A stretch of 64,000 nucleotides of DNA from an uncultured Methanoregula sp. (GTDB lineage Archaea; Halobacteriota; Methanomicrobia; Methanomicrobiales; Methanospirillaceae), in NCBI RefSeq assembly GCF_963667735.1, contig NZ_OY763919.1:2667539-2731538 (forward strand), in the 5' to 3' direction. The notes below the pieces were generated by a model. That model did not search any database. It was given only the letters and a program-made list of their open reading frames with translations, and had not been told where the DNA came from. Every line of letters starts with the position of its first letter. Position 1 is the first letter of the stretch. Shown in pieces: positions 8,422 through 27,368 of the stretch. The position numbers were made by a program, and so were the translations under genes.

Positions 8422-8430
8422 ATCCTTCCT

Positions 8431-10749: not shown

Positions 10750-10794
10750 ACCGGCTCACACCTTCCGGATGAAGGTTCCCCCCATGGATTTTTG

Positions 10795-10810
10795 CCGGGT
10801 TTTCACCCGG
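10795..10810. terminator. Short hairpin between convergent genes
   Basis: CCGGGT and ACCCGG flank TTTC, giving 6-bp arms with a tight loop. It sits in the 112-bp gap between the kinase stop (10749) and the stop of the opposing zinc-ribbon gene. The position fits a shared transcript end, but it has no long T-run, which archaeal terminators usually need. Confidence 0.3.
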
Positions 10811-10861
10811 GATGGAATCATGCAATCTCTGCCGGGGGCCTGCGGCATATCATGGGAAAAA

Positions 10862-11224: not shown

Positions 11225-11363
11225 GGTTCGTTACTCCCCGGCAGGAACGCACGTCTGCATCATGCAATGTTCCTGATCCGGCTTGCGCCGTCTGGTATTC
11301 ATATGTCTTTCACTCTTCATGACGCGAACTATTCCTTAATGCTGTTCTAGTAGATAGCAGGTA

Positions 11364-12983
11364 TCAGAACTTGGTCTCGAGCCCGTCCCGGATATTCTTT
11401 TTGGGCTCTTTGTTGAGTCCCGCGATATAGTCCTCGTAGTAGTGTATGCGGGTGCTGACAGGGAACGGGATCCCGATGGTCGAGAGGATGGCTTCGCCCT
11501 GGTCAAGGGTCTGGATCTCGATCTCCATTTTACTCAGATCCTGTTTGGCACTCCCCATGATGATGTCGCGGTCTCCCCGGTCGCCAAGCCCCATCACGAC
11601 AAACGTGTTGATCTGGGCGAGCACCTTCTGATCAATATTCTTTGGCTGCTGCGTGACAACACAGAGTCCGACGCCAAACTTACGGCCCTCCATTGCACAT
11701 TCGCGGAAGATCTGGGTGGACGAACCCCCGCTCGCAAGGACACGCTGAGCTTCCTCGATTGCAATTAATACTTGGGGGCTGGATTCTTGTCTCTCATCAA
11801 TGCCAAACCCCTGAGCCTCGGTCCGGTGTTTCTGCATAATCATCCGGGTGATAACTGATAGGACAAAGAGTTCACTACGTTCCCCCATATTAGGGATATC
11901 AATAAGGACTACCCGGTTGGCGTGAAGGTTGTTAATAATCTCATTCACCGATGAGCCCTGTGAGCGGAAAAATGGCTTGTTTATATTGACCAGGTTCTCG
12001 ATGTGCCCCTTGAGGACTCTAATCGGTCCTGAATAAGAGTTACGAATTTTCCATGCGAGACTCCCTTCAGCTACTTGTGCCGCAACTGGATCTTTTACTG
12101 GAAATATCTCGGGATCAATATTCAGAAAAAACTCAATGATATCTTTTCCATCTGTATGGGAAAATGCTTCAACAATGTCGTGTTGAGGTCCAGACAAATC
12201 ATAGAGGGTGGAGAGGTCACTGATTTTAAAGTCATTGTAATCCAGCCAGAGATGATTCATGGCATATTTTTTCCGGTCTGTTTCTCCGCGGATGGTGAAT
12301 ATGGCAAGACCTTCTTTACCGTTCGTGTAATGGACAAGACCTTTTGTAGGATTGCCTGTGGAAGATCTCTTACCGCTAACGTATTCACCGTGAGGGTCTA
12401 CAATGAGGAGACCAAATTGCTGCATTTTCATACAGGAAGCACAGAACGTTTTCATGAAGTTGGACTTACCCATACCGGTTGTGGCAAATACTCCCATGTG
12501 TTGGGGAAGTACTTTGCTGTGAATTTTGACGGGAACATCCTTCAAGTCCTCCTGCCCCGTCCGCATTACCCCTACTTCGATATCCCCCATAACTTTAGTG
12601 AGAAATGCAAAATCTTCTGATTTCGGAATCGTGACTTCGGAAAATTTTATTGGGACTGTACGGGGTTTCCGGAATTTTCCTGTATCATCGATAAAACCGA
12701 GAGGGACCGCTTCAATTCCGAGAAAAACATCTTCACCAAGACCATAGAACTGTTCGCTGAATGGACGGGTATCCCAGTTTTGATCGGCGAAATTACTCTC
12801 ATGGAATAGATCGATTACCTTTGCAAAAAAAGTATACTTTTTTCTTGCATCCTGAATTTTAACAATATCCCCAACAAACAGGTTCGCATCGTGAGGTACA
12901 ATAAACCGATATGACAGCACGCTCTTCCCGATCAATCGGAATTTTGTCTTGTCTGAATTTTCAATATCGTTTAAAGTCATCAT
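11364..12983 (-). CDS. herA: HerA DNA translocase/helicase
   Basis: This is a hexameric FtsK-like ATPase that works with NurA to resect DNA ends. An N-terminal HAS-barrel-like region (about 1-110) precedes the ATPase. Walker A is GMGKSNFMK, Walker B is LIAIEEAQRVL, and a sensor region CVVTQQPKNIDQ follows. The C-terminal 'QGEAILSTIGIPFPV' block is typical of archaeal HerA. I place the start at ATG 12983 (or 12980) rather than an upstream frame opening at 13007, because GGTGA lies just before it and the overlap with nurA is then about 20 nt. It is the last gene of mre11-rad50-nurA-herA, so translational coupling is likely. Confidence 0.92.
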   Translation of the reverse strand: MMTLNDIENSDKTKFRLIGKSVLSYRFIVPHDANLFVGDIVKIQDARKKYTFFAKVIDLFHESNFADQNWDTRPFSEQFYGLGEDVFLGIEAVPLGFIDDTGKFRKPRTVPIKFSEVTIPKSEDFAFLTKVMGDIEVGVMRTGQEDLKDVPVKIHSKVLPQHMGVFATTGMGKSNFMKTFCASCMKMQQFGLLIVDPHGEYVSGKRSSTGNPTKGLVHYTNGKEGLAIFTIRGETDRKKYAMNHLWLDYNDFKISDLSTLYDLSGPQHDIVEAFSHTDGKDIIEFFLNIDPEIFPVKDPVAAQVAEGSLAWKIRNSYSGPIRVLKGHIENLVNINKPFFRSQGSSVNEIINNLHANRVVLIDIPNMGERSELFVLSVITRMIMQKHRTEAQGFGIDERQESSPQVLIAIEEAQRVLASGGSSTQIFRECAMEGRKFGVGLCVVTQQPKNIDQKVLAQINTFVVMGLGDRGDRDIIMGSAKQDLSKMEIEIQTLDQGEAILSTIGIPFPVSTRIHYYEDYIAGLNKEPKKNIRDGLETKF

Positions 12984-13989
12984 GAATATCACCAAAAAGT
13001 AAGTCAAAAATTTCTTTGTTCAATCCGTGCGATGAAAAACCCTTCATGAGATCCTGTCGAATTTGTTCCATCACGGTTTTGTCGATAACAACTGTCCTGT
13101 GTGCATCCAGTAGGGGATACGGATATCCAGGTATTCGCCCATCATCGGAACATGCAACTATTGTGTTCATAATCATTTCGACCGTTTGTTCATCCGTTCC
13201 TTTTGGCAACTCCATTTTGAGGGGGAAATTCTTAGATGGATGTACGGAAGCCACATACAGATCTCCCTGTCGTCCCCGTTTGTAAACCGCACTATCAAGC
13301 AGATGCTCATTAATCCGAACCCACCAAGGCCCTGAAATACCAAATTTACGGGCCATGCCCCCAACTGTAGGTAATAGGGGATGCCCTCCCCCCCATGTCG
13401 CATGAGTCCGTTTCGTGATTGCTGCAAGGAGTACGCCACGGTACTGTGCGGTCTGGATAATTTCCTGCAATATGGGATCATGGTTCTGATCCGTTACACG
13501 TAATGCCCCATCAAGGAGAAGAAGGGATCCTTTGGGGAGCTGCTTGGTCTGTTGTAATGCAATCCAGTATTCGAGAGTGTCACGGAGAATTGCCGACACT
13601 TTTTCTGCATCATTGTTTTTCAGATTTGTTTCAGGAAAAATGCCAAAACAATCACTCATGAGAATTTTAAAATCTTCGTTCTCTTCTTCCGGGCCAACGG
13701 ATATTACGGTGAGGGGTGTTATTGCCCGTGAATGACGCTCTCCTTTGGAAAATGTAGTCTGGACTGCGCGAATTGCAGCGAGAGCAAAGCTTCCTGATTC
13801 CGCAATTATGGCATTACTCCCGTCAATTGCACAGACAATACCGGGAGATTTACTTTGGATGGGATGAATGTCCTGTTTGGTGAGATGGCTGAACTCACAA
13901 AACTTTTCAACAAGATCATAGGGCATCTGATGTGAGATTCGTTCAAGAATAAGGGTGATTGATTCATCATAGGATTTTTTCAGGGCCAT
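12961..13989 (-). CDS. nurA: NurA 5'-3' nuclease
   Basis: This is a 342-residue NurA-domain nuclease, partner of HerA in degrading the 5' strand at double-strand breaks. The diagnostic metal-binding motif is AIDGSNAII (about residue 51), followed by LLLDGALRV in the middle, both in RNase H-like arrangement. A C-terminal YPYPLLDAHRTVVI region carries a further Asp. The start is taken at ATG 13989, forming the TGATG junction with the rad50 stop; a GTG one codon upstream (13992) is possible. Its gene lies inside the four-gene resection operon. Confidence 0.92.
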   Translation of the reverse strand: MALKKSYDESITLILERISHQMPYDLVEKFCEFSHLTKQDIHPIQSKSPGIVCAIDGSNAIIAESGSFALAAIRAVQTTFSKGERHSRAITPLTVISVGPEEENEDFKILMSDCFGIFPETNLKNNDAEKVSAILRDTLEYWIALQQTKQLPKGSLLLLDGALRVTDQNHDPILQEIIQTAQYRGVLLAAITKRTHATWGGGHPLLPTVGGMARKFGISGPWWVRINEHLLDSAVYKRGRQGDLYVASVHPSKNFPLKMELPKGTDEQTVEMIMNTIVACSDDGRIPGYPYPLLDAHRTVVIDKTVMEQIRQDLMKGFSSHGLNKEIFDLLFGDIHDDFKRY

Positions 13990-16427
13990 CACTCCACCTC
14001 CTTCACCCGGCTTGCGCCGTCGGTTCCCATCTCAATGACGAGCGTGTTTGCAAACTCTCCCTGCATCTCGGCGATGTGCGAGATGAGGAGGATCTGGGGG
14101 AAGCGGGATTCCTGGGTCCGCAAGGCGGTTAAGAGATTGCTCCGCCGCTCCTCATCCTGGCTTCCGAAGATCTCGTCAAAGATGAGGAACGTGCTCTCGT
14201 GCACCTGGTGGAGTTCCGCAAGGTAGCGGGAGAGGGCTATTCTCAGAGCAACTGCGATGTCATCCTGCTCCCCGCCACTGAAGCGGTCAATCGCATAGTC
14301 CTCGTCCACGTCACGGACAAGCAGGTTGAAATCCTCGTCCAAGAGCACCTGCTCATACCGCCCACCCGTGATCTCGGAGATGATCCGGCTCACCTCGCCT
14401 TCAAGCCTGCTCCGCACGACCTGCATCAGGTACACCACGTACTCCGCAATAAGGGCCCGGGTTAGCTTGAGGAGTTCGATCTCATCTTTGAGGCCGGTTG
14501 CCTGCTGCTTTAAGCCGGCAATCTGCTCTGCGGCTTTTTTGTAGTCCGCGATCTTCTCTTCTGTGAAGCGGAGGTCTTTGGTTGCATTCGCAATGACGAC
14601 CTCCACGTTCCGAAGGGCTGCATCGGTTGCCGTGACAGTAGCCTCTGCTTTTGTGGCTTCAGCAGGATCGAATGCAGCTGCGTAAATCTCTTCGCCGAGT
14701 TTTGCCAGTTCCGCGTTCCTATCGGTAATCTTTCCAGTGAGATCGGCGAGTTGCTTCTTTGCCATGATGCCCTGCCCGATCTTCTTGCCGAGCTCGGTGA
14801 AACGGAGTTGCAGCTTCTGGACTTCTGTGGCTTCCCGTTCGCAGGCAAGGCAGTCCGCTTCGTTGTACCCGAGCTTCGCGATGGCCTCTGCGATCACCTG
14901 CTGCTCTGCGGTTTGCTTTTTGTGTTTCGCGACAAGCCCGGCCAGTTCCTCTTCATACAGGGGCTTCTGCCGGCATTTCTCCGCCAGCGTCCGAACCTGG
15001 TCGAGGGCGGGCTTCAGGGCCTCGATGACGGACTTTTCTTCACCGAGTTTCTCCTGCCGTTCGAGATCCGCGACTGCCTTCCCTGTGAGCTCCTGGAGTT
15101 TTGCATCGAACTCCGCATCGAGGCTCCCGAAGTGATCCCCGAGTTTCTGTCGGCAGAGCGGGCAGGTGCCATCCGCTCCTGCGGCCTGGATCGTTTTCCT
15201 GTCAGCGAGGATCTTCTCCCGCTCTTCCTTGTAGCGAACCTGCTGGGCGGCGAGGGTGCCCATCCGCTGGTGGATCTCCGCGAGCCGGAAATTAACCGCG
15301 ACTTCGAGCCGGTCGTCTGCGATCTCCGGTCCTGCTGCAAGACCCACTCGGATGTTCGCGATGAGCCCGGCCCGCTTCTCCGCATCGCCATCCAGTCCCC
15401 TGATGAGGGTACGCTGTTTCTCGGCTCTGGCTGCAAAGTCGGCGATCTGCTCAGTAGCGTGCTTGAGTTCTCCTGTGAGCCTGATATGTTCGGCCTTCTT
15501 CTCCCTGAGTGCGTCCAGTCGCAGACGGACTTCCGCATACGAGCCGGCGGACTTTTCTATCCGGTGGTACTCAACCTCCTCATCCGCGATCAGGGCAAGC
15601 GAGGCTTCGAGTTTCTTTGCCTGTGCGGTATCGGTATCCAGTTCGTGCTGGAGCGTCTGTTGCTGCTGGAGGAGCCGGGCATATGTAGTCTTCTTATCAG
15701 CGAGTACTTTGAGTTCTGCCTCGAGCTGTGCCCGCTTTGTCCGGTGAAGCTCCCTTGCTTTCGTGTGTTCTGCGATCACTGTGTGGAACGAGCTGACCGA
15801 TGCTTGCAGCTTGATAAACTCCTCTTCGCTCTGCCGGCCGGTCATGGCCGCGAGTTCGCCTTCCTTGCGCTGGAGTTCACCAGTCTTTCCATCGAGCTGC
15901 TCTTTGAGGATCGCATCGCTCTCGGTTTTTAAGAAATCGATCCCCAGGGCTTTCTGGAACCATTCCTTGCGCTTCCCAGGTGTGGTTTCGAGCAGCGTGA
16001 GAAGATCTTTCTGGCCGGCGTAGATGGTGTTCTTGAAATCCACCGGTCCCATACCAAGCGTCCGCTTGATCTCGGTCTCGACCTGGCTCACACCGGTTGC
16101 CATCAGTTTCCCGTTCCGGTGGAAGGTGGCATCATGATTCGCGGACTTTCCTTTCTTGAACGTTCGGACGACGGTATAATTATCGCCACCGATCCGGAAT
16201 TCCAGCCGGACTTCGCACTTCTCCTTGGGGGAGGCGAAACTTGAGACAACGTAGTCCGCCGCAATCCCGGTTGCCTGGACCCCATAGAGGGCAAAGAAGA
16301 TTGCCGTAACAAGACTCGACTTGCCCGTTCCGTTGTTCCCAAGGATACCGGTAATGCCGTCTCTGAAGCAGATCTCCTCATCACGGAACCGCTTGAAGTT
16401 CTTGAGAATGAGCCGGTCGAGGATCAT
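13989..16427 (-). CDS. rad50: Rad50 SMC-like ATPase of the Mre11-Rad50 complex
   Basis: This is an 812-residue ABC/SMC-type ATPase. Walker A is at about 30-38 (GNNGTGKSS). Two long coiled-coil arms flank the zinc hook CPLC near residue 420, where hooks from two molecules share a zinc. The C-terminal lobe has the signature DRFSGGEQDDIAVALR and Walker B TFLIFDEIFGSQDEERR. It bridges DNA ends and controls Mre11 nuclease access. The arms are of ordinary archaeal length. ATG overlaps the mre11 stop by 4 nt (ATGA) and the gene's TGA overlaps the nurA start, so the three are translationally coupled. Confidence 0.95.
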   Translation of the reverse strand: MILDRLILKNFKRFRDEEICFRDGITGILGNNGTGKSSLVTAIFFALYGVQATGIAADYVVSSFASPKEKCEVRLEFRIGGDNYTVVRTFKKGKSANHDATFHRNGKLMATGVSQVETEIKRTLGMGPVDFKNTIYAGQKDLLTLLETTPGKRKEWFQKALGIDFLKTESDAILKEQLDGKTGELQRKEGELAAMTGRQSEEEFIKLQASVSSFHTVIAEHTKARELHRTKRAQLEAELKVLADKKTTYARLLQQQQTLQHELDTDTAQAKKLEASLALIADEEVEYHRIEKSAGSYAEVRLRLDALREKKAEHIRLTGELKHATEQIADFAARAEKQRTLIRGLDGDAEKRAGLIANIRVGLAAGPEIADDRLEVAVNFRLAEIHQRMGTLAAQQVRYKEEREKILADRKTIQAAGADGTCPLCRQKLGDHFGSLDAEFDAKLQELTGKAVADLERQEKLGEEKSVIEALKPALDQVRTLAEKCRQKPLYEEELAGLVAKHKKQTAEQQVIAEAIAKLGYNEADCLACEREATEVQKLQLRFTELGKKIGQGIMAKKQLADLTGKITDRNAELAKLGEEIYAAAFDPAEATKAEATVTATDAALRNVEVVIANATKDLRFTEEKIADYKKAAEQIAGLKQQATGLKDEIELLKLTRALIAEYVVYLMQVVRSRLEGEVSRIISEITGGRYEQVLLDEDFNLLVRDVDEDYAIDRFSGGEQDDIAVALRIALSRYLAELHQVHESTFLIFDEIFGSQDEERRSNLLTALRTQESRFPQILLISHIAEMQGEFANTLVIEMGTDGASRVKEVE

Positions 16428-17566
16428 TCTGCTGTCCCCCGGTGCTCGTCCATCACAGACTGGAGGATCTCGCGTCCCCGCGTTGCAACAAATTCCTTCT
16501 GCTTTGCCGAGAGCTGCTTCTGGCCGATGAACTCCCCGAATTCCTGCAGGTAATCGATCATCCGAATGTCCTGCTGGAGTGGGACGGGTGAATCTTCTTC
16601 CTCCGACTTCACCCGGATTTTCAGGTCAAGGAGCTGTTCGCGAACACCTGCAAGGTCACGCATGTCGATGCCCTTGCCATGCTCCCGCGAGAGACCGTCA
16701 AGTGTCACCTGAGCCATCGCGTACTTTGGGAGATTCTTCTGCGTGATACGGCGAACAATCTCCTCAGTGATATCCCCGGGGTGGACGCCCTGGCATTTGA
16801 TCGTCCCGCAATCTGCCATGGGGGTTTTTGGGAGGTCGAGGTGCCGGACTTCGTGTGTTCTCGTATCGAATATGAGCCCGCCCTTCTCGTCCCGAATCTC
16901 CCCGTACGTGAGGTACTCGGTTGAGCCCGAGTACCAGGCATTGTCCGTGATCTGGCACTGGCGGTGGTAGTGGCCGAGCGCAATGTAATCGAATTTCTCG
17001 GAAAGGATCGTGCCGTCCAGTTCGTGCTCGGCAACGGTTGCGAGCCGCTTGTCCTTGATTGCAGTCGCGAGCCCGTGGGTCACGAGAACGTTGTTGTGCG
17101 AGGAAGAGAGTTCCACCGTGTCGAAAGCCGAGCGGTAATCTTCCACATGGAGCATGTTGGGGATGAGATGGAAGATCGTGTCGCCGATCTCCACTTTCTC
17201 GTACCGGAATTTGTAGGCCGCCGTGATCCTTGATTTGTGGTACGTGATGACTTCGAACGGCGAGGTTGTGTACCGGGTCTTGACCATGCTGTGGTTGCCG
17301 GCGATGATGACGAGCGGGATGTCTGCCGTACCCAGGCGCTCCAGTGCTTCGAGCACGGTTGTGTAGGCCTTGGTCTTCGGCTTGACCGTATCGAAGAGAT
17401 CGCCGGCATGGACGAGCACATCGGGTTTCTGGCTGATGATCTCATCTATCGCTCGGAGGAAGTTGTCGTACACCTGTTTTTCCCGGAGGTTCATGCCGCT
17501 TTCCGGATCGAGGCGGTTGAACGCCGCGAGGCCCAGGTGGGTGTCGGCGATGTGGATGAGTTTCAT
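16424..17566 (-). CDS. mre11: Mre11 DNA double-strand-break nuclease
   Basis: This is a 380-residue calcineurin-like phosphoesterase, the nuclease of the Mre11-Rad50 complex. Metal-binding motifs appear in order: HIADTHLG (5-12), HAGDLFD (about 53-59), IAGNHS (about 90-95), LVTHG and LGHYHRQ (around 195-200). The C-terminal part (about 300-380) is the Rad50-binding/capping region. It is the first gene of the resection operon. Upstream (17567-17624) lies the sharp transition from GC-rich to AT-rich DNA that opens the defence-type island. Confidence 0.95.
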   Translation of the reverse strand: MKLIHIADTHLGLAAFNRLDPESGMNLREKQVYDNFLRAIDEIISQKPDVLVHAGDLFDTVKPKTKAYTTVLEALERLGTADIPLVIIAGNHSMVKTRYTTSPFEVITYHKSRITAAYKFRYEKVEIGDTIFHLIPNMLHVEDYRSAFDTVELSSSHNNVLVTHGLATAIKDKRLATVAEHELDGTILSEKFDYIALGHYHRQCQITDNAWYSGSTEYLTYGEIRDEKGGLIFDTRTHEVRHLDLPKTPMADCGTIKCQGVHPGDITEEIVRRITQKNLPKYAMAQVTLDGLSREHGKGIDMRDLAGVREQLLDLKIRVKSEEEDSPVPLQQDIRMIDYLQEFGEFIGQKQLSAKQKEFVATRGREILQSVMDEHRGTAE

Positions 17567-17624
17567 TGTGTCTGTTTTTTATTTGGGGTGTACTGGGATA
17601 TAAGAGGAGGGGGGTGGGGTGAAA

Positions 17625-18236
17625 CTAAACCGGTGTTTTCTTAAATTTTGCGTATTTTTTCTGTTGTTGTGGCGTTAAATATGAATAAATTCTCTTAAAC
17701 TCTTGAGAATTTTTTTGATCCCGGAATTTAGGTCTTTGAAAATTAATATTAAAAATTCCAACGGGAACTCCGAGTTTATATATTTCACCCTTGTCGAGAA
17801 TACTATTCATTTGTCTAGTGCTGAAGTACCCATTGCCTTCATGAAATTCTTGGAGACTTTGAATAAATGGTGTGTCGTATTTTGACGAACGCCCCAACAA
17901 CTCAACGAAAAAAAGATCTCGTTTTAGTTTTTTGGATTCTTCCAGTATTCTTCTCTTTTCAGAATTTGTCTCCTCTAATGGTACACCCAAAAATCGGTTG
18001 ATGCATTTCGAGCCGACACCATCAATTCGGACATTAGTTATTTTATTTCTTATTGTGAAAACAAATCTGCAATCCGATTTACCACATAACGTGCAATTGC
18101 TCCAGTTTGAAGGATCTTCTCCGTTATCCAGAGAAGGTAGAACCATTTCCCATTCACTGAAAATTTGTTTTGAGGTTCCGTTAGAATTTTGACTTTGAGA
18201 TCTTAAAACTGAAAGAACTCTTTGAAAATACGTCAT
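17625..18236 (-). CDS. Unrecognised protein with a C-x2-C...VGSKCI zinc-like motif, AT-rich
   Basis: This protein of about 203 residues is encoded in AT-rich DNA unlike the repair operon beside it. It carries NCTLCGKSDCRFVF, then about 15 residues on VGSKCINRFLG. This C-x2-C...C...VGS-x-CI layout suggests a small zinc-binding fold, seen in some phage and mobile-element proteins of unknown role. The C-terminal half is charged and ends in KKYAKFKK. Start: ATG 18236 has a GGATGGAT before it and an AT-rich TATA-like tract about 60 nt upstream; the frame extends to 18323. It is divergent from the gajA-like gene and may belong to the same island. I cannot assign a function. Confidence 0.6.
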   Translation of the reverse strand: MTYFQRVLSVLRSQSQNSNGTSKQIFSEWEMVLPSLDNGEDPSNWSNCTLCGKSDCRFVFTIRNKITNVRIDGVGSKCINRFLGVPLEETNSEKRRILEESKKLKRDLFFVELLGRSSKYDTPFIQSLQEFHEGNGYFSTRQMNSILDKGEIYKLGVPVGIFNINFQRPKFRDQKNSQEFKRIYSYLTPQQQKKYAKFKKTPV

Positions 18237-18448
18237 GATATCCATCCAGAAATTTTTCCAGACTGTATGAATATTATTTATTTTCCATATCATATAAATA
18301 TCATTTTTTCTTGATAACCTCAAAATTCAAATAATTATAATTAAATCTTATTTACACGCAAATCAGATTAATGAAATATTTTTCGAAGCCAATGCAAATC
18401 AAATCTAGAAAAGAATCCGTGAATTTTGTCTGAAGGGATTTGGTAAGT

Positions 18449-20332
18449 GTGTATCTTTCTGAATTGAAACTTTGGAATTTTAGAAAATATGGGATTAAAG
18501 GAGATTCGTTTGAGAATTCAGACCCAGGCATTTCTATTCCTTTTCACGATGGCATGAATGTGTTGATCGGTGAAAATGATTCAGGTAAAACTGCAATTAT
18601 AGATGCAATCCGGTACACATTAGGAACGCAAAGCGGTGAGTGGGTTCGCTTTGAGGAATCGGATTTTCATGTGGCGGAGGGGTCAAGAACAAATGAACTT
18701 CGAATTGAATGTATTTTCCGTGATTTTTCTGAGATCGAAGCAGCTGGATTTCTCGAATGGCTCGGGATTGAACATGATCAAAAATATGTATTAGTTGTTC
18801 GTTTAATTGCCCGAAATAATGGGAATAGAATTATTACTGATGTTAGAGCGGGTCAGGATTCTGTCGGAATTCCGTTGGATGGTGATGCGAGAGCTCTATT
18901 ACGAACTACTTATCTGAAACCCTTGCGAGACGCCGACGCAGAATTAATTCCCGGACGGCGCTCACGATTTGCTCAAATTCTCAAATCCCATCCGCTTTTC
19001 AAGAATGGATCAACGGGCGATCACGAACTAGAAAATATTTTTAAGACCGCTAATTTAGCGATCGAAGAGTACTTTAAATTTAAAGATGATGGCACGGGTG
19101 CGAGTAAATTAATAGGTGAATTAAATAACTATGTGAAGGCATTTTTCCCGCAAAACGAGTCGCATTTACCCTCGGTTACAATTTCTGGAGGAGACTTATT
19201 CGATATTCTTCAACGCCTTTCCCTCTCACTTGACGCAAATCCTTCCGGACTCGGATCTGCCAATCTCTTGTTCATGGCTACGGAATTGTTATTATTGCAA
19301 TCTGATGAAAATCACGGATTAAAACTTGCTCTAATCGAAGAGTTAGAAGCCCATTTGCATCCACAAGCTCAGCTTCGTCTGATTAGGTATCTTGAAGAAA
19401 AATCTAAAAATGGTCAGTACATTCTTACAACACACAGTACGACAATGGGATCGAGCATTCCTCTTGAAAATTTAATAATTTGTAAAAATGATAAAGCATT
19501 TCCAATGAGTTATGAATACACAAATCTCTCACAAAAAAACTATGATTTTTTATACCGTTTTTTAGATGCAACAAAAGCAAACCTTTTTTTCGCCAAAGGG
19601 GTTTTGCTTGTCGAGGGTGATGCAGAGAATCTTCTAATTCCTACAATTGCAAAAATTATTGATCGTCCTTTGTATCAGTATGGTGTCTCGATTGTTAATA
19701 TTGGAAGCACCGCCTTCACTCATTTTGTTGAAATCTTTCATCGTCGCGATAATGATCAAATGGGGATCAAAGTCTCACTGATAACGGATATGGATGTCAG
19801 ACCCATTGATTATCCTGCAAAACCTGGAGAGACCAGAAATCCGACAACAATCGAAGCCGGAATAACAGAAAAAAAGAGAAAAATTTCTGAATTTGAAACT
19901 GGTGAAATCAAGGCATTTGTTTCACCTAATTGGACATTGGAATATGAAATTGCCCTATCATCATTTTGTAGTGATTTTTATCAATCGATATTATTAGCAG
20001 AAAAAATTACTACATCGAAAACCGGCGAGCCTCTTGAAACAAAAGTTAAGGAAGTTAACGCGAAAGTCGAGCAAGATTTTAAGACCTGGCAGGGGTCCTT
20101 TAAAAATGATCCTCGGATGGATCAGAAGATCGCTTATGATATCTATAAAGTGAATATGCTTGATAAAGATATTTCAAAGGCAGTAACTGCTCAAGTTTTT
20201 GCACAATTGCTAGAACGCATGTCCAATGATGAAGCCAATAAACGTACCTTAAAAGAAAAATTCCACGCTTCACCCACTCTAAAATATCTTCTCGATGCCA
20301 TCTATCATGCAACGGAGCCGCGGAGAGAATAG
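18449..20332 (+). CDS. gajA: Gabija-type OLD-family ATPase/TOPRIM endonuclease (GajA-like)
   Basis: This protein of about 627 residues has an N-terminal ABC-type ATPase: Walker A GENDSGKT near residue 45, Walker B LALIEELEAHLHP near 300 and an H-loop TTHSTTMGS. It is followed by a TOPRIM nuclease domain with LLVEGDAEN (catalytic Glu near 392) and ITDMDVRP (acidic pair near 450). This is the OLD nuclease architecture; with a UvrD-like helicase directly downstream it is the Gabija anti-phage arrangement, where GajA nicks DNA and is regulated by nucleotides. GTG 18449 follows the AAGGGA element by about 10 nt; TTG 18440 is the alternative. The stop TAG abuts the ATG of the next gene. DNA is AT-rich. 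Confidence 0.88.
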   Translation: MYLSELKLWNFRKYGIKGDSFENSDPGISIPFHDGMNVLIGENDSGKTAIIDAIRYTLGTQSGEWVRFEESDFHVAEGSRTNELRIECIFRDFSEIEAAGFLEWLGIEHDQKYVLVVRLIARNNGNRIITDVRAGQDSVGIPLDGDARALLRTTYLKPLRDADAELIPGRRSRFAQILKSHPLFKNGSTGDHELENIFKTANLAIEEYFKFKDDGTGASKLIGELNNYVKAFFPQNESHLPSVTISGGDLFDILQRLSLSLDANPSGLGSANLLFMATELLLLQSDENHGLKLALIEELEAHLHPQAQLRLIRYLEEKSKNGQYILTTHSTTMGSSIPLENLIICKNDKAFPMSYEYTNLSQKNYDFLYRFLDATKANLFFAKGVLLVEGDAENLLIPTIAKIIDRPLYQYGVSIVNIGSTAFTHFVEIFHRRDNDQMGIKVSLITDMDVRPIDYPAKPGETRNPTTIEAGITEKKRKISEFETGEIKAFVSPNWTLEYEIALSSFCSDFYQSILLAEKITTSKTGEPLETKVKEVNAKVEQDFKTWQGSFKNDPRMDQKIAYDIYKVNMLDKDISKAVTAQVFAQLLERMSNDEANKRTLKEKFHASPTLKYLLDAIYHATEPRRE

Positions 20333-22294
20333 ATGACCGTTGATATTACGGATGATGACATTTTATATGCGGAACAATTGTTGCTTAAACCAGGTGAGTC
20401 CTTTAATGGAGAGCGCAGAGATTTCATCAGAAGCATGGAATCCCGTGATGTAGTTGCATGTCCAGGTAGCGGAAAAACAACCGCTTTACTTGCTAAAATC
20501 TTAATATTGGCAAAAAAAATGCCATTTGCAGATGGTCGCGGGATTTGTGTTTTAACGCATACTAACGTAGCAATCAATGAAATCAAGAAAAAAGCAGGAG
20601 TTGCAGCAAATTCATTGTTTCGCTATCCCAATTTTTTTGGGACAATTCATTCCTTCGTAGGGACTTATCTTGCGATACCGGCGTATGTTGAGACATTTGG
20701 TCATCGCCAAATCAGAATTGATGATGATCTATATGGGCACAGAGCGAGTTATTTCTTCAGAAGAGAGGGTTTAGAATATAACGGTGCAATCTTTAACCAG
20801 GTGAAACGTCGGATTGATAATAAACCCAGAAAAGAGCAGTTAGAGATCAAGAAAGATTTTTTTATCGATCTTGTTTTTAATTTTGAAGGAGATTATGTAT
20901 CTTACTGTCGAGGAGATACAAACAATACTGTTGTCAAGGGATCGAAAAATCCTAGCAAGAGTTATTTACCAATTCATAACGCGAAATATGGATTACTCAA
21001 TGAAGGCTATCTTCGATATAATGATATATTTCCTTTAGCCACTGGTTATGTCAAAAGGAATCCTAACTTGCAGAAAATATTTTCAAATCGATTCAGTTTT
21101 GTTTTTTTTGATGAGATGCAGGATACGGATAATAATCAAAGTAAAGTAATTGATTCAATTTTTCTGCCAAATCAAAAAATGATTGTTCAGAAAATTGGAG
21201 ATCCGAATCAAGCCATATTCAAGAATTCCAATTTAGATGGCAATTGGTCCCCTCAAAAGCCGCTTTTTTTTTCAGATTCGATCAGATATGGTGAGAAAAT
21301 CTCTCATATATTAAATGCAATCAGAGTTCACACTGATATTTCACTGAAGGGTTCCGACTCGATAAAATCCAGCCCTGCCCAAATAATTACATTCAAGACC
21401 GGTGAAGAGAAATTTGTAATTGAAGCTTTCGCAAAATTAATTCAGAATTTTAACTTGCCTCAAGGAAAGTATTGTGCAGTAGGTTGGATACAACAAAATA
21501 ATGTTGAGGAGGGAAAATTATGTATTCCCGCTTACTTTCCAAAATATTGTAAGGCTCTGAAAAAGCCAACAACTCAATTCTCAAATCTTATTTCATATTC
21601 TACATATGCCATTATAATTGCGAAATCAGAAAATGTAAAGGAATTTTTTGAGGTCATTTTACATGGGATATCTCATTCCCTTGACGCTGCGAGCATTAAA
21701 ACAGAATCAAACCGGATGTATACTCCAAAATCAGCCGAAAGTTTTTGGAAACAAAAAGATGTAACTGCTTTTTATGAGTTCCGTTCTAAAATCTCAATGT
21801 TATACATTCAATCAAGAAACTCGACACTTACACCCATTTTCCTTAGAGATTTTATTGCTATGGCGATTTCTCCTATTTGGCATATACAAAATCCAGAAAA
21901 AATTGAATTTCTATCAAGCAATAGCATTGATGCAATAACTAAAATAGATGTGAAAGAGCCTGTTAATCAGGTTGAATTGGGAACCGGATCTTCAATAAGC
22001 GTTGGAACTGTGCACTCAGTTAAGGGTGAGACACACATTGCAACATTATATCTTGAAACCTATTATCAGAAATATACCGATTCAGAGCGCTTGATGGAGT
22101 TTTTAAAAGGAAATCGGCCAAAAGGAATTAAAAAACACCTAAATCAGAATTTGAAGGTTGCTCATGTAGCATTCAGTCGACCAAAACAATTGGTAGTGTT
22201 TGCTTGCCAGGTATCAAGCATTATAGGTCATGAAGAAGATTTACTGAAAAATGGGTGGGAAATTAATTCAGTATCTGATCTAATAAAAAAATAA
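20333..22294 (+). CDS. gajB: Gabija-type UvrD/Rep-like superfamily 1 helicase (GajB-like)
   Basis: This is a 653-residue SF1 helicase. Walker A/motif I is CPGSGKTT (43-50). Motif Ia is VLTHTNVAINEI. Motif II is FFDEMQDTDNNQ (about 257-268), and motif III follows at GDPNQAIF. Motif V is VGTVHSVKGETH (about 557) and motif VI is VAHVAFSRPKQL (about 609). In Gabija the helicase partner activates and assists GajA. Its start directly follows the gajA stop, so the two are one operon. As I recall, the Bacillus GajB is nearer 500 residues, so this copy carries roughly 150 extra residues, mostly between motifs III and V. It ends at a hairpin shared with the convergent gene. Confidence 0.87.
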   Translation: MTVDITDDDILYAEQLLLKPGESFNGERRDFIRSMESRDVVACPGSGKTTALLAKILILAKKMPFADGRGICVLTHTNVAINEIKKKAGVAANSLFRYPNFFGTIHSFVGTYLAIPAYVETFGHRQIRIDDDLYGHRASYFFRREGLEYNGAIFNQVKRRIDNKPRKEQLEIKKDFFIDLVFNFEGDYVSYCRGDTNNTVVKGSKNPSKSYLPIHNAKYGLLNEGYLRYNDIFPLATGYVKRNPNLQKIFSNRFSFVFFDEMQDTDNNQSKVIDSIFLPNQKMIVQKIGDPNQAIFKNSNLDGNWSPQKPLFFSDSIRYGEKISHILNAIRVHTDISLKGSDSIKSSPAQIITFKTGEEKFVIEAFAKLIQNFNLPQGKYCAVGWIQQNNVEEGKLCIPAYFPKYCKALKKPTTQFSNLISYSTYAIIIAKSENVKEFFEVILHGISHSLDAASIKTESNRMYTPKSAESFWKQKDVTAFYEFRSKISMLYIQSRNSTLTPIFLRDFIAMAISPIWHIQNPEKIEFLSSNSIDAITKIDVKEPVNQVELGTGSSISVGTVHSVKGETHIATLYLETYYQKYTDSERLMEFLKGNRPKGIKKHLNQNLKVAHVAFSRPKQLVVFACQVSSIIGHEEDLLKNGWEINSVSDLIKK

Positions 22295-22314
22295 AGGCGT
22301 TTTCACCCGCCTTT
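22293..22314. terminator. Bidirectional hairpin terminator between gajB and the convergent gene
   Basis: AAAGGCG (22293-22299) and CGCCTTT (22308-22314) are perfect 7-bp arms around an 8-nt loop. The hairpin overlaps the gajB stop and the stop of the opposing small gene. A run of A on the left and T on the right makes it work in both directions. Confidence 0.55.
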
Positions 22315-22674
22315 CTTCAAATTACTTGCTCTTGTGAACCCTTCTGGAGCAGATTCATATTTTTTGGGAAGATATGTATTGATGAGGGACTTATTATCCG
22401 ATTTTCGTCGCTCTATGGCCTTTTCAACCAATGGAGATTTTTCAATACAACTCATTATTTTTTCGACGTGCATGTCGATATATTGATTGTAATCGTTAAA
22501 TGCAGCATCTAATTTTTGAAGATCCTTTAATAAAATTTTATTGGACTCTGCACTTAAAGCCGCATTTTGAATGAGGTCGGAGATCCCTTGCTGAATTTTT
22601 TGCCTGCGATAACAATCCTGTGATATTGCTTCCAAATGACTGGCAATATTTACATCATCTTTCGAACCCCCCAT
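22303..22674 (-). CDS. Small helical protein of unknown function in the defence island
   Basis: This is a 123-residue, charged, probably all-helical protein without membrane segment. The middle has heptad-like stretches (LLKDLQKLDAAFNDYNQYI) suggesting a short coiled coil, and the end is basic (ASNLKKGG). Base composition is AT-rich like the neighbouring Gabija-like genes. It converges with gajB, sharing a terminator hairpin, and lies 141 bp downstream of nothing but a short spacer before the large nuclease-like gene on its own strand. No ribosome binding site is seen before ATG 22674. I do not recognise it. It could be an accessory or immunity factor, but that is a guess. Confidence 0.6.
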   Translation of the reverse strand: MGGSKDDVNIASHLEAISQDCYRRQKIQQGISDLIQNAALSAESNKILLKDLQKLDAAFNDYNQYIDMHVEKIMSCIEKSPLVEKAIERRKSDNKSLINTYLPKKYESAPEGFTRASNLKKGG

Positions 22675-22815
22675 GGATTAAAATAATGCGTACTCTATGA
22701 TAAAGGCAGTCCAACGGATTTCTTTCCATAAGCCGGGTTTTGGTCGTGCGGATTGGATCGTCCTTCAACCTAGGGGACAATTTATATGCATTAATTCTTG
22801 TATCATTCCCAAAAT

Positions 22816-25326
22816 TCAATCTTCATCTAGACGTAAATGATCAGCTACCCTTTCACCATTCAGCTCATCAACCTCTGGATCAAGAGAAATTACTTTTTGA
22901 AATAACTCGGATATAGTGCTTTTTTGAATTTCACAATATCCGCTTTCATTATCAACCCTTAAAAGCATCTTAAAAAATTCATCATAAAAATAATTTGGCC
23001 TTCGTAAAATCTCTTGTTGATACCTAGCATTTAGTTCATGGAGTTCAATAATGGCATCTGAATGGAAATTTACTACGCTTTTTTCACCATCCCATTTTCT
23101 TTTTCGATTTAATGACGTTGCAAAATTCTTAAAATTGCCAGGATCCACAGAATTCGAAATTATTAGATAATGATCCACTTTTTTATTGAAATTCTTCAAC
23201 TCTTCTGATTCGAGTGCTGCACGGATATATCCCCAAGCTTTGTTAATTTCAGCTCGATCTAGATCATAGGTAGCGTGTATTGCCAGTTTGCAGTCCCATA
23301 CAAAAACTCTCTTATGGCTCTGACGGGTTTTGAACTCTAAACCGACAAATCCTTCTGGAACAAAAGGTCCACCAGCTTTGTAGGCACTAGGAAAAATCTG
23401 TTTAAAAATATTGAATACATCCGTTTCGAATTCTTTCGGAGAATATTCAGTGAGTAGGGAAATTTTAGCCTTGATATTATTATAAGAACTACGAGCTGCG
23501 TTGGAAAATCTATCTGAAGAATATAGCAGCAATTTTTCGATTTTTCCCTCAATTTTTTGTAAGCCCTTTTCTTCATCAACAAGGATTTCGCTGAGTTCAA
23601 TTTGCTCGAACAATTTTTCTTGCATTTCTGTCGAATTCGCAACGCGTGCGATATTAATAAACAGAATTGGTAAACCCGATCGAACTAGATAATCTAAAGA
23701 GATTTTTGACAGTCGTTTAATATTCAAATAAACAAAAACCGGTTTGTTGTTTACCTGAATCTCATATAGGGTAAACTTTGTATTTTTAATCTGAATTTTC
23801 CGTGGTCTCTGAAATGAAAATTTTCTGCTTCGACGAATCAGATCTAAAAAGTAATTCTGGATTCCTCTTTCGGATAATTCAAGTTTATATGAATCATGAA
23901 CCTTGTGGGTATCAGATTCACAATCACGACATCGTTGGAACTCATTGGAGGAATATGCCGTGTGACCACAATTTCCGTTTAAACAGCGCAATCTAAATTC
24001 TTTTGTCGCGGTTATAATACCCGAATGTTTTAATTTATCGATCGAGACTATTTGGAAAGATTTCGGATTAATGACGCGTTTTTCTGAAAGTAAATAGTTG
24101 TAAATTGTTTGTTGATTTGGTGCTAAGTTGGTTGGATCTAATGGAATGTTCAATCGGATGCCGAATCTTTCCAAAAAAATCCTTGAAAACTCTAGACGAT
24201 CCACGTCTTTTAGTTCTTTATTATTTACTTCAAGTTCCAGAGCTCCATTCTCAAGTTCTTTAACTAAGACGTACTTTCTTTTTCCATTCTTTCGAGTTTT
24301 TGAATAACTAATTGCGAATTTATCAATGTCGGAAAGATTCTCTATAGATATTACATCTTTATCAACTAATTCGGAAATTGCAATTGAAATATCATTACTT
24401 ACGCTAAAATTGCCGATTTCAATTGGGATGCCTTGATCAAGTTTTGATCTTTTTGTTTTCAGTAATATTATCTCAAACTCATCACGACTGTCAGGATTTC
24501 GTAACCGTCCTAAAAACGTTTCGAGATTTCCACTCGATGTTGTTTCTGATTCATCAATTAGTTCCGTAGAGAATTGATTTTCAAGGATTTTTTTTATGCT
24601 TTCTGCGATGTATTTACTGCGCCCCCCCCGAATTTCCCGAATTTCCACCCCGTTCGGTTGAACCTTGATAAGCACGTATTTTGATGGTTTCAAACGTTTG
24701 TGTCCAGATGTTGTTTGAACTAATTTATCCCCAATCTGCTTATCAAAAATGAAAATCGAATCCGATGCCCCAATATACCGGACTTTTTTTGGCCCATCAT
24801 ACCAATTTTTTGTTGTAAGTTTTTTTGCAAAATTATTTGCCCCGTTCAGAAATTGTGTAGAAATATCGATGGGAAATGGATTTGCAGTTATTAATGGATT
24901 GAAAATTGTTCCCGTGGATGCAGCATTCCAATTATGATAGACAAAGATATTCAATAAATGATCTTGAGAATCATCGATTAATAGCTTGAACAAAAGAAAG
25001 AACTCTCTGTCTTCGGTGTTTACATTCGAAAAAATTTTTTTTAGATAATCGATGACGCTTTTTCTAAATCTTCTCAAAAAATCTTCTAACAATAATAGTT
25101 GTACAGCATGTGGTGAAGGAAGAATTGAATCAACGTAATTTGTTTGATCATCAAAAGGTGGTGTTGATAATTGTAAATATTGATGAATTTGTTTAAGATC
25201 GTTTAACGAAGTATCTTCAAGATAATTTTTAAGTTGCGATTTACCCCTTGATTTCCAACGATCCGTAAAGTATCCAAAATTAATTTCTTTCGCATTCCAA
25301 AATTTTTCATTATTTTTTTCGAACAT
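22816..25326 (-). CDS. Large zinc-ribbon protein with predicted PD-(D/E)XK nuclease domain, unknown family
   Basis: This protein of about 836 residues lies in AT-rich DNA next to the Gabija-like pair. A central zinc ribbon is visible (CLNGNCGHTAYS then CRDCESD, about residues 470-500). Near the C-terminus (about 660-760) the order 'EFETDVFNIFKQIFP', 'GGPFVPEGFVG' and 'VFVWDCKLAIHA' fits the core of a PD-(D/E)XK nuclease: a helix Glu, an acidic residue, and D-x-K. The first 450 residues match nothing I know. Size and layout suggest a stand-alone restriction-type or effector nuclease. Start at ATG 25326; an upstream TTG (25362) is possible. It faces away from gajB, so it is a separate unit. Catalytic assignment is inference from motif order. 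Confidence 0.65.
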   Translation of the reverse strand: MFEKNNEKFWNAKEINFGYFTDRWKSRGKSQLKNYLEDTSLNDLKQIHQYLQLSTPPFDDQTNYVDSILPSPHAVQLLLLEDFLRRFRKSVIDYLKKIFSNVNTEDREFFLLFKLLIDDSQDHLLNIFVYHNWNAASTGTIFNPLITANPFPIDISTQFLNGANNFAKKLTTKNWYDGPKKVRYIGASDSIFIFDKQIGDKLVQTTSGHKRLKPSKYVLIKVQPNGVEIREIRGGRSKYIAESIKKILENQFSTELIDESETTSSGNLETFLGRLRNPDSRDEFEIILLKTKRSKLDQGIPIEIGNFSVSNDISIAISELVDKDVISIENLSDIDKFAISYSKTRKNGKRKYVLVKELENGALELEVNNKELKDVDRLEFSRIFLERFGIRLNIPLDPTNLAPNQQTIYNYLLSEKRVINPKSFQIVSIDKLKHSGIITATKEFRLRCLNGNCGHTAYSSNEFQRCRDCESDTHKVHDSYKLELSERGIQNYFLDLIRRSRKFSFQRPRKIQIKNTKFTLYEIQVNNKPVFVYLNIKRLSKISLDYLVRSGLPILFINIARVANSTEMQEKLFEQIELSEILVDEEKGLQKIEGKIEKLLLYSSDRFSNAARSSYNNIKAKISLLTEYSPKEFETDVFNIFKQIFPSAYKAGGPFVPEGFVGLEFKTRQSHKRVFVWDCKLAIHATYDLDRAEINKAWGYIRAALESEELKNFNKKVDHYLIISNSVDPGNFKNFATSLNRKRKWDGEKSVVNFHSDAIIELHELNARYQQEILRRPNYFYDEFFKMLLRVDNESGYCEIQKSTISELFQKVISLDPEVDELNGERVADHLRLDED

Positions 25327-25625
25327 ATTTTCACTCTTTCTTGGTGAGGAGGACCAATTCAAACTCTTTTGAGATAGAATTCTTTATGAAATCGTATGGA
25401 TGATTATCATCAAAATTGAATTATATATCTTATGGTTTTGATTTTCTCTGCCCAGCGGCCCCCAAAACCTGCCTTCTTTTCCCTTTGACCGTGCTCTCCC
25501 TTAAACCATCTCCGGGCAAATCCTCTTCAACCCGGTCATCATTGAGTACCCAAACTCATTTTTAATTTTCACTCCGTGCTCCGCACCTATATCTCCCGCA
25601 TGGTCAATCCCTGATCAGGATTTTC

Positions 25626-26099
25626 ATGACTTTTTCCGATCTCCTCCTCCCCGCTATCGCGTTTATCCTGGGCATTGTCGTCGCATATCTCTTCTTCCGT
25701 CAGCAGATCAGCGCAATCGAAGGGCGGGCACGAAACGATCTCGAACGCTGGAAAATCGAATGCACCAATGATATCCGGAAGGATTCGATCAACCGCTCCC
25801 GCTCAACGCTGAAGGGAAGGATCTCCGAACAGATGGCCCCGCTCCTGCCGGAGTTTCCGTTCTCTTCCGCTGATGCCCGGTTCATCGGCAACCCGATCGA
25901 CTTTGTGGTCTTTGACGGGTATACTTCGGTAAAGGATGACAAAGGCGATATGATCAATATCGTTCTCGTGGAAGTGAAGAAAGGAAAAGGAAGACTTACG
26001 CGGGAAGAAACGCTGATCAAGCGGGCGGTCGAGGAAGGACGGGTTTCGTGGCAGACGATTTTCCTAAAAGATGAGGGACCGGGAGAGAATTCCGGATGA
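25626..26099 (+). CDS. Endonuclease related to archaeal Holliday junction resolvase (Endonuc_Holl type)
   Basis: This 157-residue protein has an N-terminal membrane helix (about 5-25, LLLPAIAFILGIVVAYLFF) followed by a basic helical linker and a nuclease core. The core shows 'IDFVVFDGYTS' (catalytic Asp), 'NIVLVEVKKGKGRLT' (E-x-K) and a final 'VSWQTIF', the pattern of archaeal resolvase-like endonucleases. The membrane anchor is a regular feature of this subgroup, so the nuclease probably works at the inner face of the membrane. Substrate unknown. Base composition is back to GC-rich here, marking the right side of the AT-rich island. Confidence 0.8.
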   Translation: MTFSDLLLPAIAFILGIVVAYLFFRQQISAIEGRARNDLERWKIECTNDIRKDSINRSRSTLKGRISEQMAPLLPEFPFSSADARFIGNPIDFVVFDGYTSVKDDKGDMINIVLVEVKKGKGRLTREETLIKRAVEEGRVSWQTIFLKDEGPGENSG

Positions 26100-26958: not shown

Positions 26959-27031
26959 CAGATCACCCGCAACTTCGGAAATCCGAAATTTCCGTTCCAG
27001 GACGTTCCCCCGGTCCCGGCTCCCCCCGACT

Positions 27032-27304
27032 TCACCATCCCCCCATGCCCAAATACGCCCGTACAGGGCTCCGTTTCCATTTTTTGAATTCCGGACTCTC
27101 GTTGTGGACAGCAATTTGAGCCCGGATTGTGTTCGCGTGGAGAAATCGCCCGTAAAATGGGTATTTTGCCGAAAATCGGCTGAAATGCACCTCGTAGAAC
27201 GACCCTTATTGGTGGTCCGGCAGCATCTTTTCCGGTGCTCTGCCATGGGTAGTTTTTACTAAGAAACGCGAAAAGAACGCGAATATGGGGGCCGGATTTT
27301 CCGG
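27032..27304. repeat. 273-bp dispersed repeat, copy 1
   Basis: This copy aligns without gaps to 34455-34727 in the same orientation. By eye I count about 25 mismatches in 273 bases (about 91% identity), with an identical core of over 50 bases (27065-27120 region). No transposase, terminal inverted repeat or target duplication is visible. A minus-strand frame is open across copy 1 but broken in copy 2, so it is probably not a gene. A short internal stem (GCCGA-AAA-TCGGC) is conserved in both. It may be a structured RNA, a mobile non-coding element or a recombination remnant. Confidence 0.85.
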
Positions 27305-27368
27305 AGACAAGTGAAAAAAACAGGAGATAGATATGATCCATGGAATGAACTAATCCCGACGGGCTTCC

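What the first reader, a model, noticed from the sequence alone, without database searches (positions are those of the whole stretch)
18449..22294. Gabija-like defence pair in an AT-rich island inserted beside the DNA-resection operon
OLD-type ATPase/TOPRIM nuclease followed directly (TAG-ATG) by a UvrD-like helicase is the Gabija layout. Seen here: Walker A/B, TOPRIM LVEGD and DMD motifs, and helicase motifs I-VI. The DNA from about 17.6 to 25.4 kb is clearly richer in A and T than both sides, pointing to transfer. The helicase is longer than the Bacillus one as I recall it, mostly between motifs III and V, which may be a lineage-specific addition. Being adjacent to mre11-rad50-nurA-herA raises the question of whether the island uses that spot as a defence hotspot.
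Basis: partly seen in the sequence, partly recalled or inferred. Interest (0 to 1): 0.7.

Follow-up and report, generated by a model that had tools for sequence, protein, structure and literature searches.

The report
Gabija defence genes at swapped repair locus
An antiviral gene pair called Gabija sits in a patch of foreign DNA next to the DNA-break-repair genes of a methane-making archaeon, and in related species that same spot holds other antiviral systems and sometimes even a different repair machine.

Summary
Confirmed: 18449-22294 encodes a complete Gabija pair. GajA matches a PADLOC GajA profile over its whole length (E 4.5e-219) and GajB a GajB profile (E 1.3e-175). The helicase's length is normal for its subfamily, not a lineage-specific addition. 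The pair lies in a 7.8-kb AT-rich island with foreign codon use, starting just upstream of the mre11 promoter region.

Beside the resection genes, relatives carry a second Gabija clade, a helicase-DUF2290 pair, SIR2-HerA, DRT4, PDC-M68 or Shango. A strong defence hit lies within about 4 kb in 9 of 19 usable flanks and in 0 of 39 control stretches.

The larger surprise: the resection machinery itself is exchanged. In 12 of 39 genomes AddAB is present, mostly in place of Mre11-Rad50, several beside leftover ends of rad50 or herA. One gene tree needs at least seven swaps. Sister genome G018 has AddAB plus PDC-M68 where the window has HerA-NurA-Rad50-Mre11 plus Gabija. The window's Rad50 groups with G034's, which carries the same Gabija, against the SMC tree, so the block probably moved between species by recombination. 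No integrase or att repeat was found. Antiviral activity is inferred, not shown.

The parts
11364..13007 (-). HerA translocase; left part of the exchangeable resection module, GC 0.46, GC3 0.51
   Evidence: Pfam DUF87; relatives; codon use
12961..13992 (-). NurA nuclease; atypical composition (GC3 0.40), 44-73% identical to the relatives compared
   Evidence: Pfam NurA
13989..16427 (-). Rad50; closest to G034 (87%) against the SMC tree
16424..17566 (-). Mre11; its 5' end faces the island
17567..17623 (-). mre11 leader and promoter-like element (TATA-like TTATATCCC with a C-rich tract on the mre11 strand; promoter reading is by eye). The ATATAAG core is in all 11 Methanoregula leaders compared, and in the cargo-bearing ones the cargo begins beyond it
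17624..25440 (.). AT-rich island (boundaries: homology ends at 17613-17623 on the left; composition step about 25440 on the right)
17625..18323 (-). 232-aa protein, no family match; a 29% relative (208 aa) lies in the G034 island
18449..20332 (+). GajA, class 2 OLD nuclease (ABC ATPase + TOPRIM)
   Evidence: PADLOC PDLC00080 4.5e-219; Pfam AAA_15 and OLD-like_TOPRIM; B. cereus GajA structures 1.2e-12
20333..22294 (+). GajB, UvrD/Rep-like SF1 helicase
   Evidence: PADLOC PDLC00131 1.3e-175; Pfam UvrD-helicase
22303..22674 (-). 123-aa protein, 86% identical in the G034 island, no match in the other 230 of 232 genomes searched
22816..25362 (-). 848-aa protein without family; Cys-rich middle and a WDCK stretch that looks like part of a PD-(D/E)XK site (read by eye)
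25626..26099 (+). Endonuc_Holl gene, right-hand neighbour: adjoins mre11 directly in sister-genus genome G059

Best explanation
A complete Gabija system, foreign to the genome, occupies a defence hotspot next to the DNA-end-resection locus of a Methanoregula archaeon. By analogy with Bacillus cereus, GajA should form the nuclease core, held in check by normal ATP levels, and GajB should sense or process DNA ends and help trigger DNA cleavage and cell arrest on infection (inferred; not tested in this organism). The hotspot works by exchange of modules between the mre11 promoter region and right-hand genes. Cargo is swapped and the resection machine (Mre11-Rad50, NurA-HerA or AddAB) is swapped too. 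The exchange is most likely homologous recombination anchored in shared gene ends and flanks, leaving truncated ends of rad50, herA, addA or mre11 as scars.
For: Gabija. GajA relatives reach many bacterial phyla, and GajB lies next door in 76 of 80 named relatives; the other four are cut by a contig end. Foreign. Hotspot: PADLOC hits at E 1e-70 or better within about 4 kb of the mre11 5' end or addA 3' end in 9 of 19 flanks with at least 3.6 kb of DNA, against 0 of 39 control stretches (128 ORFs, best 2.2e-66); p 8.7e-6, 2.6e-5 without the window, 8.4e-5 with each shared system counted once. AT-rich runs of 2 kb or more: 11 of 16 flanks of at least 4.8 kb against 4 of 40 controls, p 2.6e-5. 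Exchange of the resection machine: AddB full-length in 12 of 39 genomes, AddA/AddB match the Bacillus AddAB structures, scars, at least 7 changes on an SMC tree, direct swap in sister genome G018 at 92-95% DNA identity. Block transfer: Rad50 of window and G034 are sisters (SH-aLRT 100) although SMC is 82% to G034 and 91% to G036 and G029. Arrangement without island in G059: mre11, 213 bp, Endonuc_Holl.
Against: No integrase, tRNA or edge repeat was found, so the exchange mechanism is inferred. Of the 19 usable flanks, G011, G029, G019, G016, G025 and G007 gave no defence hit; G030 and G006 gave only weaker ones (2.3e-70, 5.3e-40), G035 only a PDC-S05 candidate, and G001 (addA fragments) was not scanned. 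G000/G034 and G036/G027 share cargo and all genomes are related, so flanks are not independent. Many genomes are draft assemblies; G010 and G007 seem to hold both machines. The tree is one gene, quick search. GajB identity to G034 (50%) is far below GajA (74%) and p123 (86%), which a single block transfer does not explain without faster change or a further exchange. In one search the GajB profile scores general PcrA/Rep structures slightly above GajB structures.
Confidence: 0.78

Rival explanations
1. A single chance insertion of a Gabija island; the site next to mre11 is not special.
For: Other AT-rich patches exist in this genome, e.g. control stretches L204 and L205; 6 of 19 usable flanks show no defence hit and 10 of 19 none counted at 1e-70.
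Against: Seven different strong systems at the same border in one genus; 9 of 19 against 0 of 39; AT-rich runs start at offset 0 from mre11 or addA in 8 of the 10 flanks with runs of 2 kb or more.
Confidence: 0.08
2. The island is an integrating mobile element (integrase-driven genomic island) that recognises a target at the mre11 promoter, perhaps the G-rich element at 17597-17619.
For: Cargo begins beyond a conserved G-rich element that occurs once in this genome; sharp composition edges.
Against: No tRNA in the window, no repeat longer than 10 nt between the two edges, no integrase match among the island and neighbouring genes tested. The same element lies in front of nurA in G019 and of mre11 where there is no cargo, so it is better explained as a promoter.
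Confidence: 0.12
3. Functional coupling: the cargo guards the neighbouring resection enzyme and acts when a virus inhibits it, as P2 Old is toxic when RecBCD is lost.
For: Cargo changes beside both kinds of resection enzyme; OLD-family proteins occur in 5 of the 22 flanks: two Gabija clades in four genomes, and an Old-like protein in G030. P2 Old toxicity in recB/recC cells is reported (PMC10781630, passages).
Against: Most cargo types (DRT4, SIR2-HerA, Shango, PDC-M68) have no link to resection that I know of. The 80 named relatives of this GajA show no Mre11, NurA or HerA in the flanks held (up to 10 kb); there was one 31-residue Rad50 match, and three loci had partial AddA-like helicase matches of 28-39%.
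Confidence: 0.1
4. The OLD protein serves a housekeeping role, like the archaeal cell-cycle OLD ATPase Cran1.
For: A non-defence archaeal OLD class is reported (PMC12796447, start of abstract in listing).
Against: Patchy presence, foreign codon use, GajB partner in 76 of 80 relatives, best PADLOC match to Gabija profiles.
Confidence: 0.03

Closest known systems
Gabija (GajA-GajB; class 2 OLD nuclease + UvrD-like helicase), Bacillus cereus VD045
   Same: Gene order, ABC ATPase + TOPRIM with the E and DxD catalytic residues, SF1 helicase with DEXQD box, profile match over full length
   Different: Low sequence similarity to the B. cereus pair (GajA about 50 bits); helicase about 160 aa longer, a trait of its subfamily; archaeal host
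Core-gene-bounded defence hotspots (P. aeruginosa, PMC10250203; E. coli, PMC10121019; both seen in search listing only)
   Same: Fixed flanks, changing unrelated defence systems, foreign composition
   Different: In an archaeal genus; the border is the DNA-break resection operon, which is itself exchanged for AddAB, and gene-end scars record past exchanges
AddAB / RecBCD helicase-nuclease
   Same: AddA (UvrD + PD-(D/E)XK) and AddB (PD-(D/E)XK) match the solved Bacillus complex 3u44
   Different: In a methanogen, mostly in place of Mre11-Rad50; accompanied by an unknown protein of about 500 aa (x507 or x496) in 7 of 13 addB loci, counting the broken one in G010

Membership tests
Gabija | GajA: OLD-family ABC ATPase plus TOPRIM domain | tested here: met
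   Pfam AAA_15 (93.8 bits, cutoff 32.1) and OLD-like_TOPRIM (63.7, cutoff 23.2)
Gabija | TOPRIM catalytic Glu and DxD (E379, D432/D434 in B. cereus GajA) | tested here: met
   E389 aligns with the LIEG glutamate of B. cereus GajA; D447/D449 (TDMD) assigned by motif, outside that alignment; all three invariant in the 4 proteins aligned; B. cereus residues from PMC10781630 passages
Gabija | Adjacent UvrD/Rep-like helicase GajB with DEXQD box | tested here: met
   TAG-ATG junction; D260 E261 Q263 D264 invariant in the 19 aligned; PADLOC GajB 1.3e-175
Gabija | Best profile match inside GajA and GajB families over full length | tested here: met
   GajA 5-626 on profile 2-620/622; GajB 3-646 on 4-646/647
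Gabija | 4:4 GajA-GajB complex, ATP-inhibited nuclease, protection against viruses | not testable with these tools
   needs expression and infection
Defence hotspot | Several unrelated defence systems between the same borders in related genomes | tested here: met
Defence hotspot | Enriched over other places in the same genus | tested here: met
   9 of 19 flanks against 0 of 39 control stretches, p 8.7e-6; flanks are not phylogenetically independent
Integrative element / genomic island | Integrase and att repeats at the edges | tested here: not met
   no repeat longer than 10 nt between the two edges, no tRNA, no integrase match among the genes tested
AddAB (in relatives) | AddA with UvrD helicase and PD-(D/E)XK nuclease; AddB with PD-(D/E)XK nuclease | tested here: met
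   for the G030 pair: Pfam, PDB 3u44 A 1.8e-72 and B 4.1e-8

The most novel reading that the evidence does not exclude
The Methanoregula resection locus is a combined repair-defence switch. Mre11-Rad50, NurA-HerA and AddAB are themselves traded as immune modules together with accessory systems such as Gabija, because the end-resection enzyme is an early target of viruses and the neighbouring cargo is selected to act when it fails (a guard arrangement).
Probability: 0.12. Interest if true: 0.85.

Novelty: new variant of a known kind. Interest (0 to 1): 0.58.

Why it matters
Gabija itself is known and common (more than 15% of genomes; PMC10781630, abstract in listing). What is less expected is that an operon usually treated as core archaeal DNA repair is repeatedly exchanged, within one genus, for a bacterial-type AddAB enzyme, and that this exchange happens where defence systems turn over. 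It suggests that DNA-end processing is under the same viral pressure as immunity, and it gives a place to look for new archaeal defence genes: the unknown cargo proteins here, and x507/x496 beside AddAB. My searches (openly licensed PMC papers only, top of each list seen) showed nothing on such a locus. That is no proof of absence.

Tried and rejected
Lineage-specific helicase insertion: rejected, relatives in several phyla are as long. Integrase or att-driven island: no tRNA, no integrase match, longest direct match between the two edges 9 nt, inverted 10 nt. RNA feature: no Rfam match at gathering score in 10-42 kb. The 280-bp repeat at 27028-27306 and 34453-34727 as a local anchor: it belongs to a dispersed family with 12-17 matches, many partial, in four of seven genomes, so not specific. 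The 848-aa protein: no PADLOC match even at E 10, none in Pfam or NCBIfam at 0.01, one relative in 232 genomes, none found in viral contigs. Its AlphaFold model is poor (mean pLDDT 46) and the fold search found nothing at 0.001, so its nuclease reading is by eye only.

Rows dropped or not scanned in the hotspot count. Flanks shorter than 3.6 kb (G031, G002, G010, G013) were left out; counting 23 flanks of any length it is 9 of 23, p 4.0e-5. G001 was at first left out and is now counted as a miss, unscanned. The first Fisher tests used smaller or miscounted denominators and are replaced. Two PADLOC candidate hits (PDC-S05 in G035, 4.5e-150; PDC-S01 in G013, 2.7e-112) pass 1e-70 but were set aside as generic-looking. 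Some ORFs were not scanned: one in G007, at least one each in G006, G030 and G018. One of the 40 control stretches (L203) yielded no ORF under the rule, hence 39.
Full report
WHAT IS THERE. The two ORFs are as described: GajA on the + strand from GTG 18449 (or TTG 18440) to 20332, and GajB from ATG 20333, directly after the TAG, to 22294. PADLOC places GajA at E 4.5e-219 (profile PDLC00080, residues 5-626) and GajB at 1.3e-175 (PDLC00131, residues 3-646 of 653). Pfam gives AAA_15 and OLD-like_TOPRIM for GajA and UvrD-helicase for GajB, all above cutoff. Against solved structures GajA finds class 2 OLD TOPRIM domains and the B. cereus GajA chains at about 1e-12, and E389 lines up with the LIEG glutamate of B. 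cereus GajA. PMC10781630 (passages read) names E379, D432 and D434 as the active site; the window has LVEGD and TDMD, whose E, D and D are invariant in the four GajA proteins aligned.

HELICASE LENGTH. It is not: 18 relatives that I chose from archaea and several bacterial phyla run from 626 to 676 aa, and the best PADLOC profile is 647 positions long. In the profile search of solved structures, PcrA and Rep score slightly above the B. cereus GajB chains, so the link of this GajB to Gabija rests on its own family profile and on its partner.

RELATIVES OF GajA. A scan of named genomes found 491 relatives, of which the best 80 were kept. The nearest are 65-69% identical, in Methanoculleus, Methanocalculus, an unplaced Methanomicrobiales bin and a Methanocellaceae bin, with one Deltaproteobacteria bin at 67%; the rest lie in many bacterial phyla. 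GajB lies next door in 76 of 80, and the other four are cut by a contig end. In the flanks held (up to 10 kb, often less) no Mre11, NurA or HerA was found; there was one 31-residue Rad50 match (L158), and partial AddA-like helicase matches of 28-39% in three loci (L164, L175, L188). So in this set the link to the resection locus is not general. The window's own genus is identified as Methanoregula because G033, in the same genus, has a contig of 2,820,858 bp, the size published for M. formicica SMSP (PMC4155587, read whole).

FOREIGN ISLAND. GC drops to 0.335-0.383 across 18-25 kb. The five island genes have GC3 0.27-0.34. My first control (54 genes, 5th percentile 0.54, one gene as low) left out an AT-rich control stretch; with it (60 genes) the 5th percentile is 0.42, two genes are as low, and the island genes still lie beyond the 95th percentile of codon-usage distance (2.14-2.41 against 1.77). 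NurA (GC3 0.40) and, less so, HerA (0.51) also look atypical. On the left the homology with G034 and G036 stops at 17613 and 17623, just upstream of a promoter-like element whose core is present in all 11 Methanoregula mre11 leaders compared. On the right the composition step is near 25440, before an Endonuc_Holl gene. In sister-genus genome G059 that gene follows mre11 directly after 213 bp, an arrangement without the island.

HOTSPOT TEST. I fetched the flanks of the resection genes in 23 genomes of the genus. Next to the mre11 5' end or the addA 3' end there are: Gabija in the window and in G034 (1.0e-213), a second Gabija clade (G036 with a kinase; G027), a helicase with DUF2290 (G024), HerA + SIR2 (G033), DRT4 (G038), PDC-M68A/B (G018), Shango SngA-B-C (G003), and weaker hits, Old (G030, 2.3e-70) and an RT-associated DUF1848 (G006, 5.3e-40). 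No hit appeared in G011, G029, G019, G016, G025 and G007, within the limits told under Tried and rejected; G001 was not scanned. Counting E 1e-70 or better within about 4 kb, 9 of 19 flanks with at least 3.6 kb have one. In 39 control stretches from ten genomes of the genus (128 ORFs in 4 kb each) 8 profiles match at 1e-30, each in one ORF (five type II methyltransferase profiles, HEAT-ARM_XIII, Csa3, mad3); the best is 2.2e-66, so 0 of 39. Fisher p is 8.7e-6, 2.6e-5 without the window, and 8.4e-5 counting each shared system once. AT-rich runs of at least 2 kb occur in 11 of 16 flanks of at least 4.8 kb and in 4 of 40 controls, p 2.6e-5. The flanks are from related genomes, so p-values are a guide only.

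THE RESECTION MACHINE IS EXCHANGED TOO. Of 39 genomes in the genus, 24 give a Mre11 match, 14 of them full-length, and 14 give an AddB match, 12 full-length. AddA and AddB of G030 match the solved Bacillus AddAB (1.8e-72 and 4.1e-8). Genomes with signs of both are few: G018, whose full-length Mre11 is only 50% identical and lies elsewhere, and the fragmented assemblies G010 and G007. HerA is full-length in 17 of 39, but in only two of the twelve AddAB genomes (G030, G007). Truncated gene ends lie at these loci: rad50 3' ends beside AddAB in G030, G038, G033 (30 residues) and G013; addA 3' ends between intact mre11 and the DUF2290 cargo in G024; herA 3' ends in G034, G004, G010, G012, G029, G001, G003 and G007; mre11 5' ends in G026, G022, G005 and G037. 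In fragmented assemblies some may be contig breaks.

COUNTING AND DIRECTION. On an SMC tree of 32 genomes (quick search, one gene) the Mre11-Rad50/AddAB state needs at least 7 changes among 23 scored genomes; 9 with neither or both were not scored. The closest case is G018: SMC 98% identical, DNA 92-95% identical over window 1-5212 and 5422-11253, then x507-addB-addA-PDC-M68 instead of herA-nurA-rad50-mre11-Gabija, with matching sequence resuming near window 36.7 kb, partly rearranged. Conversely Rad50 of the window groups with G034 (SH-aLRT 100, 87% identity) though SMC is 82% to G034 and 91% to G036 and G029. Mre11 is less telling (87% to G034, 88% to G036). G034 carries the same Gabija and p123 (86%). 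A block of mre11-rad50-Gabija-p123 most likely moved between species; GajB (50% to G034) fits this less well than GajA (74%) and p123.

HOW IT PROBABLY WORKS. From B. cereus work (PMC10781630 and PMC10568477, passages): GajA and GajB form a 4:4 complex, GajA cleaves DNA and is inhibited by ATP, GajB is proposed to respond to DNA ends, and defence is described as abortive infection. This is inferred here. The locus itself works as an exchange site; recombination between shared flanks and gene ends explains the scars, the conserved borders and the incongruent Rad50 tree, but the process was not observed and no integrase or att repeat was found.

NOVELTY. Gabija and core-gene-bounded hotspots are known kinds. 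New to me are a resection operon as the border and as part of the exchange. Paper searches (openly licensed papers; listings only, apart from the papers named above and passages of PMC9960219 and PMC12977600) found nothing on point.

Noticed in passing
L068 3689-10163, L069, L070, L087-L096 (Methanoregula relatives): AddAB mostly in place of Mre11-Rad50 in 12 of 39 genomes, with rad50, herA and addA gene-end scars at several loci; at least seven changes of state on an SMC tree.
   Followed up: yes
window 17597-17619: G-rich element (GATATAAGAGGAGGGGGGTGGGG) on the mre11 leader, one copy in the whole genome (pattern). Copies precede mre11 in relatives and what is by position nurA in G019, G030 and G037, where nurA stands apart from rad50; none in 800 kb of controls. 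The strict pattern misses G011, G034 and G024. Possibly a dedicated promoter or operator.
   Followed up: partly
window 11364-13992: nurA-herA have atypical codon use and NurA is only 55% identical to the G034 protein while Rad50 is 87%, so the pair seems to be exchanged separately.
   Followed up: partly
window 22816-25362; L242 9222-11732: 848-aa protein of unknown family, AT-rich in both its known places (GC 0.36 among ORFs of 0.52-0.68 in G061); candidate single-gene nuclease.
   Followed up: partly
L069 11870-13393, L070 8339-9829 and homologues: Unknown proteins of about 500 aa (x507, x496) precede addB in 7 of 13 addB loci, counting the broken G010 one.
   Followed up: no
L068 10286-14121; L087 3744-8665: Metallophosphoesterase-like plus SMC/SbcC-like ATPase pairs beside AddAB, distinct from Mre11-Rad50.
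   Followed up: no
window 27028-27306 and 34453-34727: 280-bp dispersed repeat, 12-17 matches, many partial, in G000, G018, G036 and G029, none in G034, G033 and G011.
   Followed up: partly
L079 548-12626 (G089, Methanocalculus chunghsingensis): Gabija directly followed by genes that look, by size and reading, like BREX components (1158-aa ATPase, 1093-aa methyltransferase); not profile-tested.
   Followed up: no
window 27369-27923: 184-aa HNH protein with weak similarity to IscB/Cas9d HNH regions, native-like composition.
   Followed up: no
L073, L074, L077, L103 (G024, G029, G019, G017): herA stands about 8-20 kb from rad50 with other genes between, a possible further insertion site inside the operon (positions).
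   Followed up: no
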